DNA of 64,000 nucleotides from Methanolinea mesophila (lineage in GTDB: Archaea > Halobacteriota > Methanomicrobia > Methanomicrobiales > Methanospirillaceae). Within the stretch, counting starts at the first letter, position 1. Every line of letters starts with the position of its first letter. Shown here in pieces: positions 29,296 to 37,013 of this stretch. A model generated the notes under the pieces. That model had not been told where the DNA came from, did no database searches, and saw only the letters and a program-made list of their open reading frames with translations. The position numbers were made by a program, and so were the translations under genes. Location: assembly GCF_017873855.1 (NCBI RefSeq), contig NZ_JAGGKR010000002.1:62001-126000 (forward strand). Reading direction: 5' to 3'.

Positions 29296-29330
29296 ATTTA
29301 TATATCTATCAAGAGACGTAACGATAGATA
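29296..29330 (+). promoter_or_regulatory. TATA box with overlapping 8-base inverted repeat
   Basis: TATA sequence gatttatatatc (29296-29307) is overlapped by an inverted repeat, TATCTATC (29303-29310) and GATAGATA (29323-29330), with a 12-base spacer. The right arm falls on the expected start site near 29,328. A repressor dimer bound here would cover the whole core promoter. The spacing (20 bases centre to centre) places both arms on one DNA face. Confidence 0.5.
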
Positions 29331-29349: not shown

Positions 29350-29405
29350 GAGCCGAAATACCGGCTCTTTCGAGATCTCGCCAAAGAAAAATGTAGTTGC
29401 AACTA
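29350..29405 (+). promoter_or_regulatory. Three palindromes in the 5' untranslated leader
   Basis: The leader of about 85 bases contains a hairpin GAGCCG / CGGCTC with a six-base loop (29350-29367), a perfect ten-base palindrome CGAGATCTCG (29371-29380), and a perfect 12-base palindrome TAGTTGCAACTA (29394-29405). GGTGA follows at 29408-29412, directly before ATG 29415. Leaders this long and structured are unusual here, where most mRNAs look leaderless. Confidence 0.45.
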
Positions 29406-29414
29406 AGGTGACCT

Positions 29415-32400
29415 ATGAGCCATTCAAGATGTGTAAGGTACGCGGTTCCTTTATTGCTCCTGGTGCTGGTAGGGGTGCCGGTATCGGCTGCGCTCAGCCT
29501 GAACGGCATAACTCCCGGGACAGGGCTAAACAACGGGACTGTGTTCATAACGAATCTTTCCGGTACCGACTTCCCGATGGATGCGACGGTACTCCTGAAC
29601 CGTAGCGGATACCCGGACATCCCGGGTATGTATGTGACCGTGGCCGATCCTACCAGGATCACCTGTGTAATGGATCTTACCGGGAAAAGGTACGGCCCCT
29701 GGGACGTGGTGGTGAACGACCCCACGAATGTAACCCGTGCGGTACTGCCGAACGGGTTTACGATCGTGAACCCGCCGCCCTATCTCTACGGGATAGTTCC
29801 CGCGTCGGGGATCAACACGGGCAGCGTAGGAGCTTCCATATCGGGAGCGAACTTCTTCTCGCCGTCGGTAAACCTGACGAACGTCACCTACGGGACAATC
29901 GTGGGGACCGGGGTTTCGGGCAATGCGACCGATATCGTCTGCACCTTCGACCTCAACGGCCGGAATGAAGGCCTGTACGACCTGGTGCTGACCAATGCCG
30001 ACGGCCAGAGCGTGACGCTGCCGAACGCGTTCAGGGTCACGTATCCTCCGCCGGTGATTACCAGCATAACTCCCTCGAGTGGCATTAACAACGGCGTGAT
30101 AGGCATCACCGACCTTGCTGGTGCGAACTTCATGACCGGTGCGACCGTTACGCTGGTCAAGACCGGGGAGACGCCGATCGCGACGATCAACGGCCCGATC
30201 GTGCAACCGAATAAGATCCTGTGTTTCTTTGACCTTACCGGCCAGCCGGTGGGTGTCTGGGACGTGGTGGTGGACAATCCCGACGGCCAGAACGGCACGT
30301 TGCCGGGTGCGTTTACTATCTATTATCCGCAGGCCCCGGTAGTGACCGGGATCACGCCGTCGACCGGCGTGAACGACGGTCCCATCGTCATTCCGGACAT
30401 CAGCGGCACGGGCTTTGAGAACAACCTCACGGTCACCCTCACCATGACCGGGCAGCCTGACATCCCGGGAACGGACGTGATCCGGATGAGCGGCACGCAG
30501 GTGAATGCGACCTTCGACCTTACAGGCGTTGCGACCGGCGCGTGGGACGTGGTGGTTACCAATAACGACGGCCAGTCCGGAACCCTACCGGCGGCTTTTA
30601 CCGTGACCAACCCTCCGCCGACGCTCGTTTCAATAACACCTGATACCGGGGTAAACACCGGGCCCGTGGTGGTTACCGACCTTGAAGGGACAGGGTTCGT
30701 GACCGGAGCGACCGTTACGCTCACCCGCACGGGAGAGCCGGACATCGTCGCCACCGGCGTGACCGTGGTGAATTCGACGACCATTACCTGCACCCTCGAT
30801 ATCACCAATGCGGCTGCCGGTCTCTGGAACGTGACCGTGGAGAATACCGACGCCCAGTCGGCCACCCTGGTCGACGGGTTCAATATCACCAACCCTGCGC
30901 CAACGGTCACCATGCTCACCCCGTCCGAGGGAGTGAACACCGCACCGGTGTATATCAGCGATCTCGCGGGAACCGGATTTTTACCCGGAGCGACCGCGAA
31001 ACTCTCCATGACCGGGCAGCCCGATATCGTGGCCACCGGCCTGACTGTGGTCGACCCGACCTCGATCACCTGTACCTTTGACATCACCGGCGTGGCGACC
31101 GGGTCCTGGGACGTGACGGTGGAGAACCCCGACGGTCTGACCGGTACTCTGCCGAACGGGTTCAACGTGACCAACCCGGCGCCCACAGTTACGGGCATCG
31201 ACCCCGCGTACGGGACAAACGACGGGCTGGTGCCGATCCTCAACCTGTCAGGGACCGGGTTCCTGCCGGGGATCACGGCGAAGCTGACCAAAACAGGCGA
31301 ATCTGATATTGTTGGCCAGGGCCTGGTGGTCACCAGCACCAAGATCATCTGCTTCTTCGACCTGACCGGAGCGAAGGTCGGGCCATGGGACGTGGTGGTG
31401 GAGAACACCGACGGCAAGTCGGCGACCCTGCCCGACGGATTTATTGTCTACTACCCGCAGGCACCTTCGATCACCTCGATCACCCCTGATCAGGGCATAA
31501 CCTTCCAGACCGTGTCCATCACCGACCTCGCCGGAAGCGGGTTCGAGCCGGGGGTTACGGTAAACCTCACCAAAGCCGGTGAACCGACGATCGTTGCGAC
31601 CAACGTGACCCGGGTCAGCGGCAGCCAGATCACCTGCGACCTCGACCTTACCGGCGCGGTTGTAGGGCCGTGGACCGTGGTGGTGACCAACGACGACGAT
31701 CAGCTGGGAACCCTTAATGATGGATTTTTGGTGGTATATCCGGCGCCCACGGTGACCTCGATCACCCCGCCGACCGGGATCAATAACGGCCCGGTGTTCA
31801 TCACCGACCTCGCGGGAACCGCGTTCCGGAACGGTGCGACGGTTACCCTGGAAAAGACAAACCAGTCCGATATCACCGCAACCAACGTGACCGTGGTCCA
31901 CCGGGGCAAGATCACCTGCACCTTCAACCTCGCCGGTGCCATGACCGGCCCGTGGGACGTCGTGGTCAGGAACGATGACGGCCAGTCCGGCACGCTGCCG
32001 AACGGGTTCACGGTGCAGAACCCCGCGCCCACGGTGACTTCGATCTCCCCGAACAAGGGTCCGAACGACCGCTCGGTGGACATCGGCAGCCTTCAGGGTA
32101 CCGGGTTCCTGCCCGGAGCGACGGTGAAACTGACCCGGACCGGGCAGCCCGATATCGTCGCCTCGGGCGTCACCGTACAGAGTGCGAACCTGATCAATTG
32201 CACGGTCGACCTGTCCGGTGCGATGACCGGGTTGTGGAACGTGGTCGTGACCAACACCGACGGCAAATCGGGATCCCTGCCCAACGGGTTCACCATCACC
32301 CCGCCCCCGCCGGTGGCGGCGTTCACCGGGAACCCCACGCTGGGAACGGTGCCGCTCACGGTACAGTTTACGGATGACTCGCTGAACGGCCCCACGGTCT

Positions 32401-35336
32401 GGGTCTGGGACTTCGGCGACGGCACGCTCGCAGGTATCTACGAGCAGAACCCGATCCACACCTACAACGCACCGGGAGTCTACAACGTCACACTCACCGT
32501 GTTCAACGCGGGCGGCTCCGATACCCTTACAAAGTACGACTACATCACCGTGGTGACCCGGCCGATTGCCAACTTCACCGCGGCGCCCACCGATGGCACG
32601 GCACCGCTCCTGGTCCACTTCACCGATACCTCGGACGGCAACCCGACCAAGTGGACCTGGAAGTTCGGTGACGGCAGCTTCTCCATACAGCAGAACCCCT
32701 ATCACCTCTACACAAAGGCAGGTGTGTATAATGTCAGCCTGACCGTCCTCAATCCGGCGGGAACCGACACGCTCACCAAATACGGTCTGATAACTGTCAG
32801 GTCGCTGCCGGTCGCGGCGTTTACCGCCAACACCACCGCGGGGATGTCCCCGCTCGCCGTCCAGTTCCTGGACCAGTCCACCGGTGACCCGACCAACTGG
32901 ACCTGGAGCTTCGGTGACGGAGGAATGTCCACCGAGCAGAACCCGGTCCATGTCTATACCCAGGCCGGGACCTACAGCGTCCAGTTGATTGCAGCCAACC
33001 CGTCTGGGCTGAGCACCGAGACCAAGAACAGGTACATAAACGTGCAGGAAGGGTTGCAGGCGGCATTCACCTACACCACCAGCAACCCCGATAACACCGC
33101 ACCGCTCTCGGTTGCATTCATCGATATGTCAACGGACCGGCCTATCAGGTGGACATGGCAGTTCGGTGACGGTACGATCTCCACGAGCAGGAACCCGATC
33201 CACAACTACCCCGTGGCTGGGAATTACACCGTTACCCTCACCGTGACCGGGCTCTCGGGCACCAGTGCGACCTCGAAGACCATCGTCGTTACCAGCCCGC
33301 TTGCAGCGCACTTTACCGCCATGCCCGAACGGGGGACGGTCCCGCTCACCGTACGGTTCACGGACAACACCATAGGCGAACCTGAACGCTGGTTCTGGAT
33401 TTTCGGCGACGGGCAGTTCCAGGAGGTCACCAACCCGGCCGAGAAGAACGTGGTCCATACCTACAATACACCGGGGAACTTTACCGTGAGCCTCACCGTG
33501 ACCGGGGCGGACAGGACTGATACGGCCTCGCGGGTTATCGAGGTCATCAACCCGGCACCGGTCCCTCCCCAACCACTCGACCCCCACAGCATTCCCAAAT
33601 GGGTGAACCAGATCGATGGTCCACCACCGGTCTATGTCCCGGGCGAGGATGGAAAATATGATGTGACCATGTCGAGTTTTACCCAGCAGATCCTGCCTTC
33701 TCCGCTCCCCGCCTCCGAGGTCTGGGGATACGGCGGGCAGACGAAGGATGCGGTGACAGGCCAGTCCCTTGGGTTTATCAGCAACTCCCCGGGGCCGACA
33801 TTTGAAGCAGAAAAGGGTTCCCCAATAACGGTAAAATGGGAAAACCAGATTACCGAGCCGCATCTGTTCGCCGTCGACCCTACGATCCACTGGGCAAACC
33901 CGAATCAGATGGCACACCCGCTCCCGCCGTTTAATCTCTACCCGCCAGGATACGAGCAGGCCCAGTACCCGGTCCCGCTGGTAACCCACCTTCATGGTGC
34001 CGAGGTCCAGTCCACATCTGACGGGGGGCCGGAACAATGGTTTACCTCGACCGGCATTCACGGAATGGACTACCGGACCGAGGAACCGACGGATCTAAAT
34101 TCCGCGGTATACGTCTATCCCGACAGCCAGCAGCCAACTACGCTCTGGTACCATGACCATGCACTCGGCATCACCCGCATCAACGTAATGTCCGGTCTTG
34201 CCGGGTTCTACCTGCTGCGGGACGAGGCGGACCCCGTCGGGGCGATCCTGCCCCAGGGTAAATACGAGGTGCCCCTTGCAATCCAGGACCGGACATTCCT
34301 CACGGACGGTTCCATATTCTTCCCATCGGAGGGGAACGTTCCCGACGTGCACCCCTACTGGAACCCCGAGTTCTTCGGTGATACCATCATGGTCAACGGC
34401 AAGGTATGGCCGAACATGAACGTGGACCGTGCGGCATACAGGTTCCGCCTCCTCGACGGCTCGAATGCCAGGTTCTATACGCTCTCCCTTTCGAACGGGA
34501 TGAACTTCACCCAGATTGGGAGCGACGGCGGGTACCTCAAGACCGCGGCAGAACTCTCCGAACTCACGATTGCCCCTGGCGAACGTGCCGACATCCTGAT
34601 AGATTTCTCGAACCTGGCCCCGGGAACCACCGTGGTTCTCACGAATAACGCCCGTACCCCCTATCCGTCCGGGGACCCTGTAGACCCTACCACGACCGGA
34701 CAGATAATCCAGTTCACGGTCACCGCGAACGCAGGGCCCGGGATGCCGGTATTGCCGGCGGAACTGAACCCCACTCTGACGGGGTCGTTCCCCAATCTGC
34801 CGTCCCCGGTCAATACCAGGATCCTGACCCTCCAGGAAGTCGTCGATCCGGGCGACAACCCGCTGGAGATCCTCCTTGACGGCCAGAAGTGGATGGCCCC
34901 GGTCTCCGAACTCCCCGTACAGGGAACCACTGAAGAGTGGATGATAGTGAATCCGACCATGGATACCCACCCCATCCACCTCCACCTGGTGCAGTTCCAG
35001 CTGGTGAGCCGACAGGCGTTCAACGTCGATGCCTACCAGACCGACTGGATTGCGCTCAACGGGGAGCCACCGCTCAGCCACCCCACGATCAACGTCCCCA
35101 ACCTTACGCCCTACCTGCAGGGAAGTCCGAGTGGGCCTCTCCCGAGCGAGACAGGATGGAAGGATACCGTCCAGATGAACCCCGGTGAAGTGACCATAAT
35201 CAGGATTCGGTGGGCCCAGCAGGACGGCAATGCGTATCCGTTCGATCCCACGACGGGACCAGGATATGTGTGGCACTGCCACATCCTCGATCACGAGGAT
35301 AACGAGATGATGCGACCCTATATGGTGGCCGCCTGA
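29415..35336 (+). CDS. Giant secreted protein: IPT/TIG repeats - PKD domains - CotA-type multicopper oxidase
   Basis: 1973 residues with a Sec signal (CVRYAVPLLLLVLVGVPVSAA). Residues 27-960 are ten tandem IPT/TIG-like repeats of about 93 residues, each opening SITPxxGxNNG and closing GTLPNGF. Residues 963-1377 are five PKD domains (WDFGDGT, WKFGDGS, WSFGDGG, WQFGDGT, WIFGDGQ). Residues 1395-1973 are a complete laccase of the CotA/bilirubin-oxidase type. Its copper ligands are HLH (1525, 1527), HDH (1580, 1582), HPIHLH (1852, 1855, 1857), HCH (1954-1956), His1960 and Met1965, so type 1 and the trinuclear centre are both intact. Such enzymes oxidise phenols, metals or bilirubin with O2. No membrane or sorting anchor follows. 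The repeats suggest a surface stalk or adhesin. The substrate in an anaerobe is unknown. Confidence 0.95.
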   Translation: MSHSRCVRYAVPLLLLVLVGVPVSAALSLNGITPGTGLNNGTVFITNLSGTDFPMDATVLLNRSGYPDIPGMYVTVADPTRITCVMDLTGKRYGPWDVVVNDPTNVTRAVLPNGFTIVNPPPYLYGIVPASGINTGSVGASISGANFFSPSVNLTNVTYGTIVGTGVSGNATDIVCTFDLNGRNEGLYDLVLTNADGQSVTLPNAFRVTYPPPVITSITPSSGINNGVIGITDLAGANFMTGATVTLVKTGETPIATINGPIVQPNKILCFFDLTGQPVGVWDVVVDNPDGQNGTLPGAFTIYYPQAPVVTGITPSTGVNDGPIVIPDISGTGFENNLTVTLTMTGQPDIPGTDVIRMSGTQVNATFDLTGVATGAWDVVVTNNDGQSGTLPAAFTVTNPPPTLVSITPDTGVNTGPVVVTDLEGTGFVTGATVTLTRTGEPDIVATGVTVVNSTTITCTLDITNAAAGLWNVTVENTDAQSATLVDGFNITNPAPTVTMLTPSEGVNTAPVYISDLAGTGFLPGATAKLSMTGQPDIVATGLTVVDPTSITCTFDITGVATGSWDVTVENPDGLTGTLPNGFNVTNPAPTVTGIDPAYGTNDGLVPILNLSGTGFLPGITAKLTKTGESDIVGQGLVVTSTKIICFFDLTGAKVGPWDVVVENTDGKSATLPDGFIVYYPQAPSITSITPDQGITFQTVSITDLAGSGFEPGVTVNLTKAGEPTIVATNVTRVSGSQITCDLDLTGAVVGPWTVVVTNDDDQLGTLNDGFLVVYPAPTVTSITPPTGINNGPVFITDLAGTAFRNGATVTLEKTNQSDITATNVTVVHRGKITCTFNLAGAMTGPWDVVVRNDDGQSGTLPNGFTVQNPAPTVTSISPNKGPNDRSVDIGSLQGTGFLPGATVKLTRTGQPDIVASGVTVQSANLINCTVDLSGAMTGLWNVVVTNTDGKSGSLPNGFTITPPPPVAAFTGNPTLGTVPLTVQFTDDSLNGPTVWVWDFGDGTLAGIYEQNPIHTYNAPGVYNVTLTVFNAGGSDTLTKYDYITVVTRPIANFTAAPTDGTAPLLVHFTDTSDGNPTKWTWKFGDGSFSIQQNPYHLYTKAGVYNVSLTVLNPAGTDTLTKYGLITVRSLPVAAFTANTTAGMSPLAVQFLDQSTGDPTNWTWSFGDGGMSTEQNPVHVYTQAGTYSVQLIAANPSGLSTETKNRYINVQEGLQAAFTYTTSNPDNTAPLSVAFIDMSTDRPIRWTWQFGDGTISTSRNPIHNYPVAGNYTVTLTVTGLSGTSATSKTIVVTSPLAAHFTAMPERGTVPLTVRFTDNTIGEPERWFWIFGDGQFQEVTNPAEKNVVHTYNTPGNFTVSLTVTGADRTDTASRVIEVINPAPVPPQPLDPHSIPKWVNQIDGPPPVYVPGEDGKYDVTMSSFTQQILPSPLPASEVWGYGGQTKDAVTGQSLGFISNSPGPTFEAEKGSPITVKWENQITEPHLFAVDPTIHWANPNQMAHPLPPFNLYPPGYEQAQYPVPLVTHLHGAEVQSTSDGGPEQWFTSTGIHGMDYRTEEPTDLNSAVYVYPDSQQPTTLWYHDHALGITRINVMSGLAGFYLLRDEADPVGAILPQGKYEVPLAIQDRTFLTDGSIFFPSEGNVPDVHPYWNPEFFGDTIMVNGKVWPNMNVDRAAYRFRLLDGSNARFYTLSLSNGMNFTQIGSDGGYLKTAAELSELTIAPGERADILIDFSNLAPGTTVVLTNNARTPYPSGDPVDPTTTGQIIQFTVTANAGPGMPVLPAELNPTLTGSFPNLPSPVNTRILTLQEVVDPGDNPLEILLDGQKWMAPVSELPVQGTTEEWMIVNPTMDTHPIHLHLVQFQLVSRQAFNVDAYQTDWIALNGEPPLSHPTINVPNLTPYLQGSPSGPLPSETGWKDTVQMNPGEVTIIRIRWAQQDGNAYPFDPTTGPGYVWHCHILDHEDNEMMRPYMVAA
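29493..32300 (+). repeat. Ten tandem coding repeats of about 280 bp
   Basis: The DNA encoding the IPT/TIG-like repeats is itself recognisably repeated, for example the recurring gacggccagtccggcacg and acgtggtggtg blocks once per unit. Repeats 5-7 and 9-10 are the most alike, implying fairly recent duplications, while repeats 1, 2 and 8 are more divergent. Unequal recombination could change copy number. Confidence 0.7.
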
Positions 35337-36515: not shown

Positions 36516-37013
36516 TCAGATATGGCACCCTCCACCTTTCATACCCCTCTTCTCGAAAAATTGCTGGTGGTATTCCTCCGCCGGCCAGAAGGTGGTGGCC
36601 GGGACGATCTGGGTCACGATCTTCTTTCCCGCAAATCTCGGCGAGTCCTGCTGCCTCTTCAGCGACTCTCCGGCCTTCTCCTTCTGCTCCCCGGAGTGAT
36701 AGAAGATTGCCGACCGGTAATTGCTGCCGATATCCGGCCCCTGGCGGTTCATCTGGGTCGGGTCATGTATCGACCAGAACACGTCGAGCAGCCGGGTGTA
36801 GGTGACGACCGTCGGGTCGAACACGATCTCCACTGCTTCCGCGTGTCCCGTAGTATGCGAGCACACCTGCTCGTAGGTAGGATGCTCCTTTGTCCCCCCC
36901 GTATACCCTACCCGGGTGGAGATAACCCCCTTTATCTGGCGGAACGAGGCTTCGACGCCCCAGAAGCATCCCGCGGCGAATGTCGCAGTTTCGGTGCGAT
37001 TCATCTCTGTCAT
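36516..37013 (-). CDS. msrA: Peptide methionine sulfoxide reductase MsrA
   Basis: Repairs methionine-S-sulfoxide in oxidised proteins. The 165-residue protein has the active-site motif [14 protein letters not shown] (catalytic Cys about residue 16), [18 protein letters not shown] and the conserved Tyr/Asp segment [23 protein letters not shown]. The C-terminal Cys in KGGGCHI is a likely resolving Cys. GGAG lies five bases before ATG 37013. MsrA is common in methanogens facing oxygen exposure. The PEBP gene is upstream on the same strand, 36 bases away, so the two may be cotranscribed. Confidence 0.96.

What the first reader, a model, noticed from the sequence alone, without database searches (positions are those of the whole stretch)
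29415..35336. Adhesin-like giant protein ending in an intact CotA-type laccase in a methanogen
A single 1973-residue frame joins a signal peptide, ten IPT/TIG-like repeats, five PKD domains and a complete multicopper oxidase with all type 1, 2 and 3 ligands (H1525/1527, H1580/1582, H1852/1855/1857, H-C-H1954-1956, H1960, M1965). Laccases normally use O2, yet the host should be a strict anaerobe. A surface-tethered oxidase could scavenge oxygen, oxidise metals or phenols, or pass electrons to the outside. I know of no described archaeal protein of this layout.
Basis: partly seen in the sequence, partly recalled or inferred. Interest (0 to 1): 0.93.

Follow-up and report, generated by a model that had tools for sequence, protein, structure and literature searches.

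The report
Methanogen surface protein carrying a laccase
A methane-making archaeon, a strict anaerobe, carries a very large secreted protein that joins fifteen surface-type repeats to an apparently intact copper oxidase of the kind that burns oxygen to water, which hints that such microbes may deal with oxygen, phenols or metals outside the cell.

Summary
One uninterrupted 1973-residue frame (29415-35336) reads signal peptide, ten IPT/TIG-like repeats, five PKD domains and a complete CotA-like multicopper oxidase (MCO). All 12 copper ligands and both CotA proton-relay acids are present and are invariant in 44 relatives. The domain models at pLDDT 92 and its best PDB matches are CotA laccases, at about 37% identity. 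The host is a methanogen (mcrA present, Methanomicrobiales by related loci).

The assembly-error worry is answered inside the genome. The gene is a mosaic. Its repeat half is 90.6% identical in DNA to a second gene that stops after the fifth PKD and has no oxidase. Its oxidase half is 80.5% identical to a PKD-CotA fusion elsewhere. A third copy is CotA alone. Both halves are under strong purifying selection (dN/dS 0.07-0.10).

Standalone CotA-like MCOs of this clade are widespread in anaerobic archaea and Clostridia. CotA-like hits occur in only 8 of 232 Methanomicrobiales genomes. One other methanogen has a separately arisen Ig-repeat/CotA-like fusion.

Most likely it is a secreted oxidase that uses O2 when O2 intrudes, with humic phenols or metals as reductant. 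Substrate, expression and surface anchoring are unproven. This is a new variant of a known kind.

The parts
29297..29304 (+). TATA-like archaeal promoter element (TTTATATA)
   Evidence: read directly from the sequence; about 111 bases before the ATG; no expression data
29407..29411 (+). Shine-Dalgarno GGTGA before the ATG; the same motif GAGGTGACC/AAGGTGACC is kept before the ATG of the adhesin paralog L158 while its further upstream sequence differs
29415..35336 (+). gene for the 1973-residue repeat-protein/multicopper-oxidase fusion
   Evidence: open frame; domains
29415..29489 (+). signal peptide, residues 1-25 (likely cut after VSA)
   Evidence: the only strongly hydrophobic 19-residue stretch of the protein; cleavage site inferred by eye
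29490..32309 (+). ten IPT/TIG-like Ig-fold repeats of about 94 residues (residues 26-965)
   Evidence: repeat alignment; model of two repeats pLDDT 96.5, best PDB matches plexin/MET IPT domains
32310..33557 (+). five PKD domains (residues 966-1381)
   Evidence: Pfam PF18911, five stretches; alignment
29389..33504 (+). mosaic half 1: 90.6% identical in DNA to an oxidase-less paralog (L158 8182-12333, minus strand; 1383 aa)
   Evidence: blastn; dN/dS 0.09
33573..35336 (+). mosaic half 2: 80.5% identical in DNA to the oxidase part of the PKD-CotA paralog (L100 9046-11988)
   Evidence: blastn; dN/dS 0.07
33597..35333 (+). CotA-like three-cupredoxin multicopper oxidase domain (residues 1395-1973)
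   Evidence: phmmer to CotA; AlphaFold2 pLDDT 92, pTM 0.92; PDB fold matches CotA, TM-score 0.79/0.91
33987..34022 (+). HLH motif (H1525, H1527; CotA H105, H107) and proton-relay D1536 (CotA D116)
   Evidence: invariant in all 45 aligned sequences
34152..34160 (+). HDH motif (H1580, H1582; CotA H153, H155)
   Evidence: invariant
34968..34985 (+). HPIHLH motif (H1852, H1855, H1857; CotA H419, H422, H424)
   Evidence: invariant
35274..35309 (+). HCHILDHEDNEM motif (H1954, C1955, H1956, H1960, relay E1961, axial M1965; CotA H491, C492, H493, H497, E498, M502)
   Evidence: invariant; model confidence is low just here (residues 561-570 of the model)

Best explanation
It is a secreted, multi-domain CotA-like multicopper oxidase of a methanogen. 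Shown: the fifteen Ig-fold repeats and the oxidase form one reading frame; all copper ligands and the two CotA proton-relay acids are present; selection keeps both halves; the fusion arose by joining two modules that also exist separately in the same genome. Inferred: the repeats form a long stalk or adhesive arm that holds the oxidase at the cell surface, in the S-layer or on particles. Inferred: the type 1 copper takes electrons one at a time from extracellular reductants (humic or plant phenols, possibly Mn(II), Fe(II) or Cu(I)), and the trinuclear site reduces O2 to water. In an anaerobe the enzyme would then be idle under anoxia and would act when O2 intrudes, as a local O2 sink that makes no superoxide or peroxide, with phenol or metal oxidation as the coupled reaction.
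For: Fold and sequence match to CotA. Twelve ligands plus D116 and E498 equivalents invariant in 45 sequences; D116 and E498 sit next to the trinuclear (O2-reducing) site in CotA, as the titles of the mutant structures state. dN/dS of the oxidase domain is 0.07 between the two fusions and 0.13 against the standalone paralog. Signal peptide and no other membrane segment. Three CotA-like copies are kept in one 2.66 Mb genome. The genome has an Fe/Mn superoxide dismutase and two Cu-exporting-type ATPases but no catalase, and a methionine sulfoxide reductase gene lies about 1.2 kb away on the other strand. Nearest methanogen relatives include MAGs labelled OWC and Chersky; OWC probably stands for the Old Woman Creek wetland, for which methane production in oxygenated soil is reported (PMC5691036). 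Precedent: Haloferax LccA, a secreted archaeal laccase active on phenols, ABTS and bilirubin (PMC6985049).
Against: No activity, copper content or expression data. No surface anchor found, so display at the surface is unproven. No conserved neighbour gene that would name a substrate was seen around nine CotA-type loci (by eye). In oxic soil of that wetland, known oxygen-tolerance genes of methanogens were not consistently transcribed (PMC5691036), so O2 defence is not an obligatory need there; MCOs were not discussed. The AlphaFold model is least certain exactly in the HCH...M loop.
Confidence: 0.5

Rival explanations
1. It is mainly a metal oxidase: it oxidises Cu(I) (or Fe(II)/Mn(II)) outside the cell to keep toxic or reactive metal out, in the manner of CueO or Mn-oxidising MCOs, and phenols are incidental.
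For: Complete MCO site; weaker similarity to CueO models; Cu-ATPases in the genome show copper handling.
Against: Score far below the NCBIfam CueO cut-off (168 vs 525 bits); the 15 methionines of the domain are scattered, with no CueO-type Met-rich segment; no copper-resistance genes next to the CotA-like genes (by eye).
Confidence: 0.2
2. The oxidase works without O2, passing electrons from an extracellular donor to another acceptor (for example oxidised humics or a partner organism), so that it belongs to the anaerobic physiology of the host.
For: The clade is found mostly in anaerobes: methanogens, Bathyarchaeota, Clostridia, Syntrophomonas. A rice-field study speaks of laccase-like enzymes depolymerising lignin anaerobically (PMC10895765).
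Against: All residues of the O2-reducing centre and both relay acids are invariant in every relative, including relatives in aerobic groups; a Bacillus badius plasmid carries a 56% identical full-length copy. No acceptor site or cytochrome partner was seen.
Confidence: 0.08
3. The oxidase half is a passenger: a folded but inactive or dispensable module, and the protein works as an adhesin only.
For: The oxidase-less paralog (L158) shows that the repeat half stands alone as a gene.
Against: dN/dS of 0.07 for the oxidase half and invariance of all ligands; a pure passenger would drift.
Confidence: 0.07
4. Assembly chimera of an adhesin gene and an oxidase gene.
For: The gene is a mosaic of two sequences that exist elsewhere in the genome.
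Against: The halves differ from those copies by 9% and 20% along their whole length, so they are not misplaced pieces of them; the frame is intact; the genome is in two contigs at 99% completeness; a second independent PKD-CotA fusion uses the same linker.
Confidence: 0.02

Closest known systems
CotA laccase of Bacillus spore coat (PDB 1gsk and others)
   Same: Whole oxidase domain aligns; same three-cupredoxin fold (TM-score 0.91 normalised by CotA), all copper ligands, D116 and E498
   Different: About 37% identity; secreted by a non-sporing methanogen; extra loop before the HLH motif; no C229-C322 type disulfide possible (only one Cys in the domain); joined to 15 Ig-fold repeats
Unnamed CotA-like clade of anaerobes (Methanoregula UBA471, Bathyarchaeota, Thorarchaeota, Syntrophomonas, Clostridium) and of Bacillus badius plasmid pPM400
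   Same: 55-67% identical over the whole domain, same invariant residues
   Different: All of the best 80 relatives are frames of at most 869 aa, none with IPT repeats or N-terminal PKD arrays
LccA of Haloferax volcanii
   Same: Archaeal, secreted, laccase-type MCO (PMC6985049)
   Different: Single-enzyme glycoprotein of an aerobe; not compared directly here; haloarchaeal plasmid MCOs are 38-41% identical
Ig-like/CotA-like fusion in another Methanoregulaceae genome (G227, L149, 1492 aa)
   Same: N-terminal Ig-like domains (Big_5, He_PIG, Big_9) followed by a CotA-like MCO
   Different: Different Ig families, oxidase only 46% identical and outside the clade of the window's oxidase: a separate fusion; extra 230 aa after the MCO
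Giant MCO proteins of Methanoregulaceae (L102, L103, L153, L154)
   Same: MCO plus FN3, PKD, TIG or FG-GAP domains in one secreted-type frame of 1270-1730 aa
   Different: Distant MCO family (about 36% identity over part of the domain), order reversed: oxidase first, surface domains after

Membership tests
CotA-like three-domain laccase/MCO | Ten His plus Cys and axial Met ligands of type 1, 2 and 3 copper | tested here: met
   all 12 present; invariant in 45 sequences
CotA-like three-domain laccase/MCO | Three cupredoxin domains in CotA arrangement | tested here: met
   AlphaFold2 pLDDT 92; best 27 PDB matches are CotA or its Bacillus relatives
CotA-like three-domain laccase/MCO | Acids next to the trinuclear site (CotA D116, E498) | tested here: met
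   D1536 and E1961, invariant
CotA-like three-domain laccase/MCO | Disulfide of the substrate-site lid in B. subtilis CotA (C229-C322; from memory) | tested here: not met
   the domain has one Cys, the type 1 ligand; so it is CotA-like, not a CotA ortholog
CotA-like three-domain laccase/MCO | O2-dependent oxidation of phenols or ABTS | not testable with these tools
   needs purified protein
CueO copper efflux oxidase | NCBIfam NF008205 curated cut-off (525 bits) | tested here: not met
   167.9 bits
CueO copper efflux oxidase | Met-rich segment over the type 1 site | tested here: not met
   methionines are scattered
PhsA o-aminophenol oxidase | NCBIfam NF045554 curated cut-off (950 bits) | tested here: not met
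   244.5 bits
IPT/TIG domain | Pfam PF01833 match | tested here: not met
   not reported at E<=0.01 for the window protein
IPT/TIG domain | IPT Ig fold | tested here: met
   top PDB matches plexin and MET IPT domains, E 5e-6, though TM-scores are modest for the pair
PKD-repeat surface protein of methanogens | PKD domains over cut-off | tested here: met
   five, PF18911 273.9 bits
PKD-repeat surface protein of methanogens | Signal peptide plus membrane or sorting anchor | tested here: inconclusive
   signal peptide seen, no other hydrophobic segment

The most novel reading that the evidence does not exclude
Some methanogens build surface-displayed oxygen-consuming laccases on long Ig-repeat stalks by shuffling modules within the genome, and use them as an extracellular O2 shield that turns humic phenols or metals into the electron source, a kind of oxygen defence not described for methanogens.
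Probability: 0.25. Interest if true: 0.82.

Novelty: new variant of a known kind. Interest (0 to 1): 0.58.

Why it matters
How methanogens stay alive and active where oxygen reaches them, in rice paddies and wetland soils, is an open question for methane budgets, and known intracellular defences do not explain field data well (PMC5691036). A secreted enzyme that reduces O2 fully to water outside the cell would be a defence of a new type for them, and it may also oxidise soil phenols. The genome offers a ready comparison set: the same oxidase alone, with two PKD domains, and with fifteen repeats, plus the repeat part alone.

Tried and rejected
Assembly error or frameshift between PKD and MCO: rejected. 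Filing the domain as CueO or PhsA: rejected on curated cut-offs. A unique one-off fusion: rejected, because a second fusion lies in the same genome and a separate one in G227. Substrate from gene neighbourhood: neighbour genes of nine CotA-type loci were listed and read by eye; no shared partner was seen. A first tree was wrong because one row was sliced out of frame; it was rebuilt, and its deeper forks remain weakly supported. Literature search for an archaeal PKD-MCO protein found none in the held library, and most subscription papers are not held.

Full report
Observation. The window frame 29415-35336 (+) is open over 1973 codons. It starts with a signal peptide and is preceded by a GGTGA ribosome-binding site and a TATA-like box. 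Ten repeats of about 94 residues follow. By sequence, Pfam does not call them TIG, but a model of two repeats (pLDDT 96.5) matches plexin and MET IPT domains best. Then come five PKD domains and a multicopper oxidase domain, residues 1395-1973, that aligns with Bacillus CotA over its whole length. The AlphaFold2 model of that domain (45 sequences, pLDDT 92, pTM 0.92) matches CotA structures best. The loop with the last ligands is the least certain part of the model, probably because copper is absent from the prediction (inference).

Copper site. So are D1536 and E1961, the counterparts of CotA D116 and E498. The sequence gives no reason to doubt that the domain can bind four coppers and reduce O2. 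Activity itself is not shown.

Host. The genome (2.66 Mb, two contigs, 99% complete) carries mcrA and is a methanogen. Its nearest named relatives in the CotA-like set are Methanoregula and other Methanomicrobiales. It has an Fe/Mn superoxide dismutase, no catalase match, and two Cu-type P-ATPases.

Origin of the fusion. The genome has three CotA-like copies: the window gene, a 980-aa protein with signal peptide, two PKD domains, about 190 further residues and the oxidase (L100), and a 630-aa oxidase alone (L101). It also has a 1383-aa protein with signal peptide, ten IPT repeats and five PKD domains that ends where the oxidase would begin (L158). In DNA, window 29389-33504 is 90.6% identical to L158, and window 33573-35336 is 80.5% identical to L100. 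The window gene is therefore a mosaic of two resident modules joined at a proline-rich linker. In the tree the three oxidases of this genome form one clade (100/100), with the standalone copy outside the two fusions, so the fusion is most simply a derived state (the root is an assumption). Synonymous changes far exceed non-synonymous ones in both halves (dN/dS 0.09 and 0.07), so both halves are maintained. This also disposes of a chimeric assembly: the halves differ from their paralogs along their whole length.

Distribution. In 232 Methanomicrobiales genomes, 8 have a CotA-like match at E<=1e-30 and 16 have any PF07731 MCO. The 80 best relatives elsewhere come from Bathyarchaeota, Thorarchaeota, Clostridia, Syntrophomonas, Desulfosporosinus and others; none is longer than 869 aa. 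A Bacillus badius plasmid carries a 56% identical copy. One other Methanoregulaceae genome has an Ig-like/CotA-like fusion whose oxidase lies outside this clade, so the layout arose at least twice. A distant MCO family in Methanoregulaceae carries PKD, TIG, FN3 or FG-GAP domains after the oxidase. Joining surface domains to MCOs is thus a habit of this family of methanogens.

Mechanism. The best-supported reading is a secreted oxidase that takes electrons from extracellular phenols or metals and reduces O2 to water, which in an anaerobe means action during O2 intrusion. Shown: layout, site, selection, modular origin. Inferred: surface display (no anchor was found), substrate, and role. Laccase-like genes in anaerobic bacteria were noted in 2011, with the suggestion that signal peptides let the enzyme act in more aerobic surroundings away from the cell (PMC3192119). 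[quoted passage not shown] No paper on an archaeal PKD-MCO protein was found in the held library.

Verdict. The finding is real and the gene is intact. The enzyme class is known, standalone relatives in anaerobes are common, and an archaeal secreted laccase has been characterised, so this is a new variant of a known kind rather than a new kind. What is surprising is the host, the architecture, and that the genome keeps the modules both apart and joined, which makes the function directly testable.

Noticed in passing
L158 8182-12333 (G000:C1 ~500-504 kb): Oxidase-less paralog of the window's repeat half, 1383 aa, 94% identical in protein over 1350 residues; a natural comparison for adhesion studies.
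   Followed up: yes
L102 6851-11593, minus strand: A 1580-aa protein with a distant MCO, a Thr-rich N-terminal stretch and FG-GAP repeats, next to genes that look like a MacB-type ABC transporter; in another genome (L151) an MCO also lies beside such transporter genes.
   Followed up: partly
L102 143-6556, plus strand: A 2137-aa frame beside the distant MCO gene reads like a subtilase followed by a papain-like protease and PKD and other surface domains.
   Followed up: no
L149 5729-10207: 1492-aa protein of another Methanoregulaceae genome: Ig-like array, CotA-like MCO and about 230 further residues of unknown type.
   Followed up: partly
L146 1-1788: Methanomicrobiales CotA-like MCO ending in a dockerin-like stretch (PF00404 just below its cut-off), a different way of attaching the oxidase to something.
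   Followed up: partly
L154 4511-9574, minus strand: 1687-aa MCO protein with a C-terminal TIG domain that Pfam does recognise.
   Followed up: no
window 36516-37013, minus strand: Peptide methionine sulfoxide reductase (MsrA) gene downstream of the fusion gene, on the opposite strand.
   Followed up: partly
L163 (Bacillus badius plasmid pPM400): A 56% identical MCO on a plasmid, near a Tn3-family transposase, points to mobility of this clade.
   Followed up: partly
L143 (G222:C255:4912-5349): CotA-like fragment with an internal TAG, perhaps a decaying copy.
   Followed up: no
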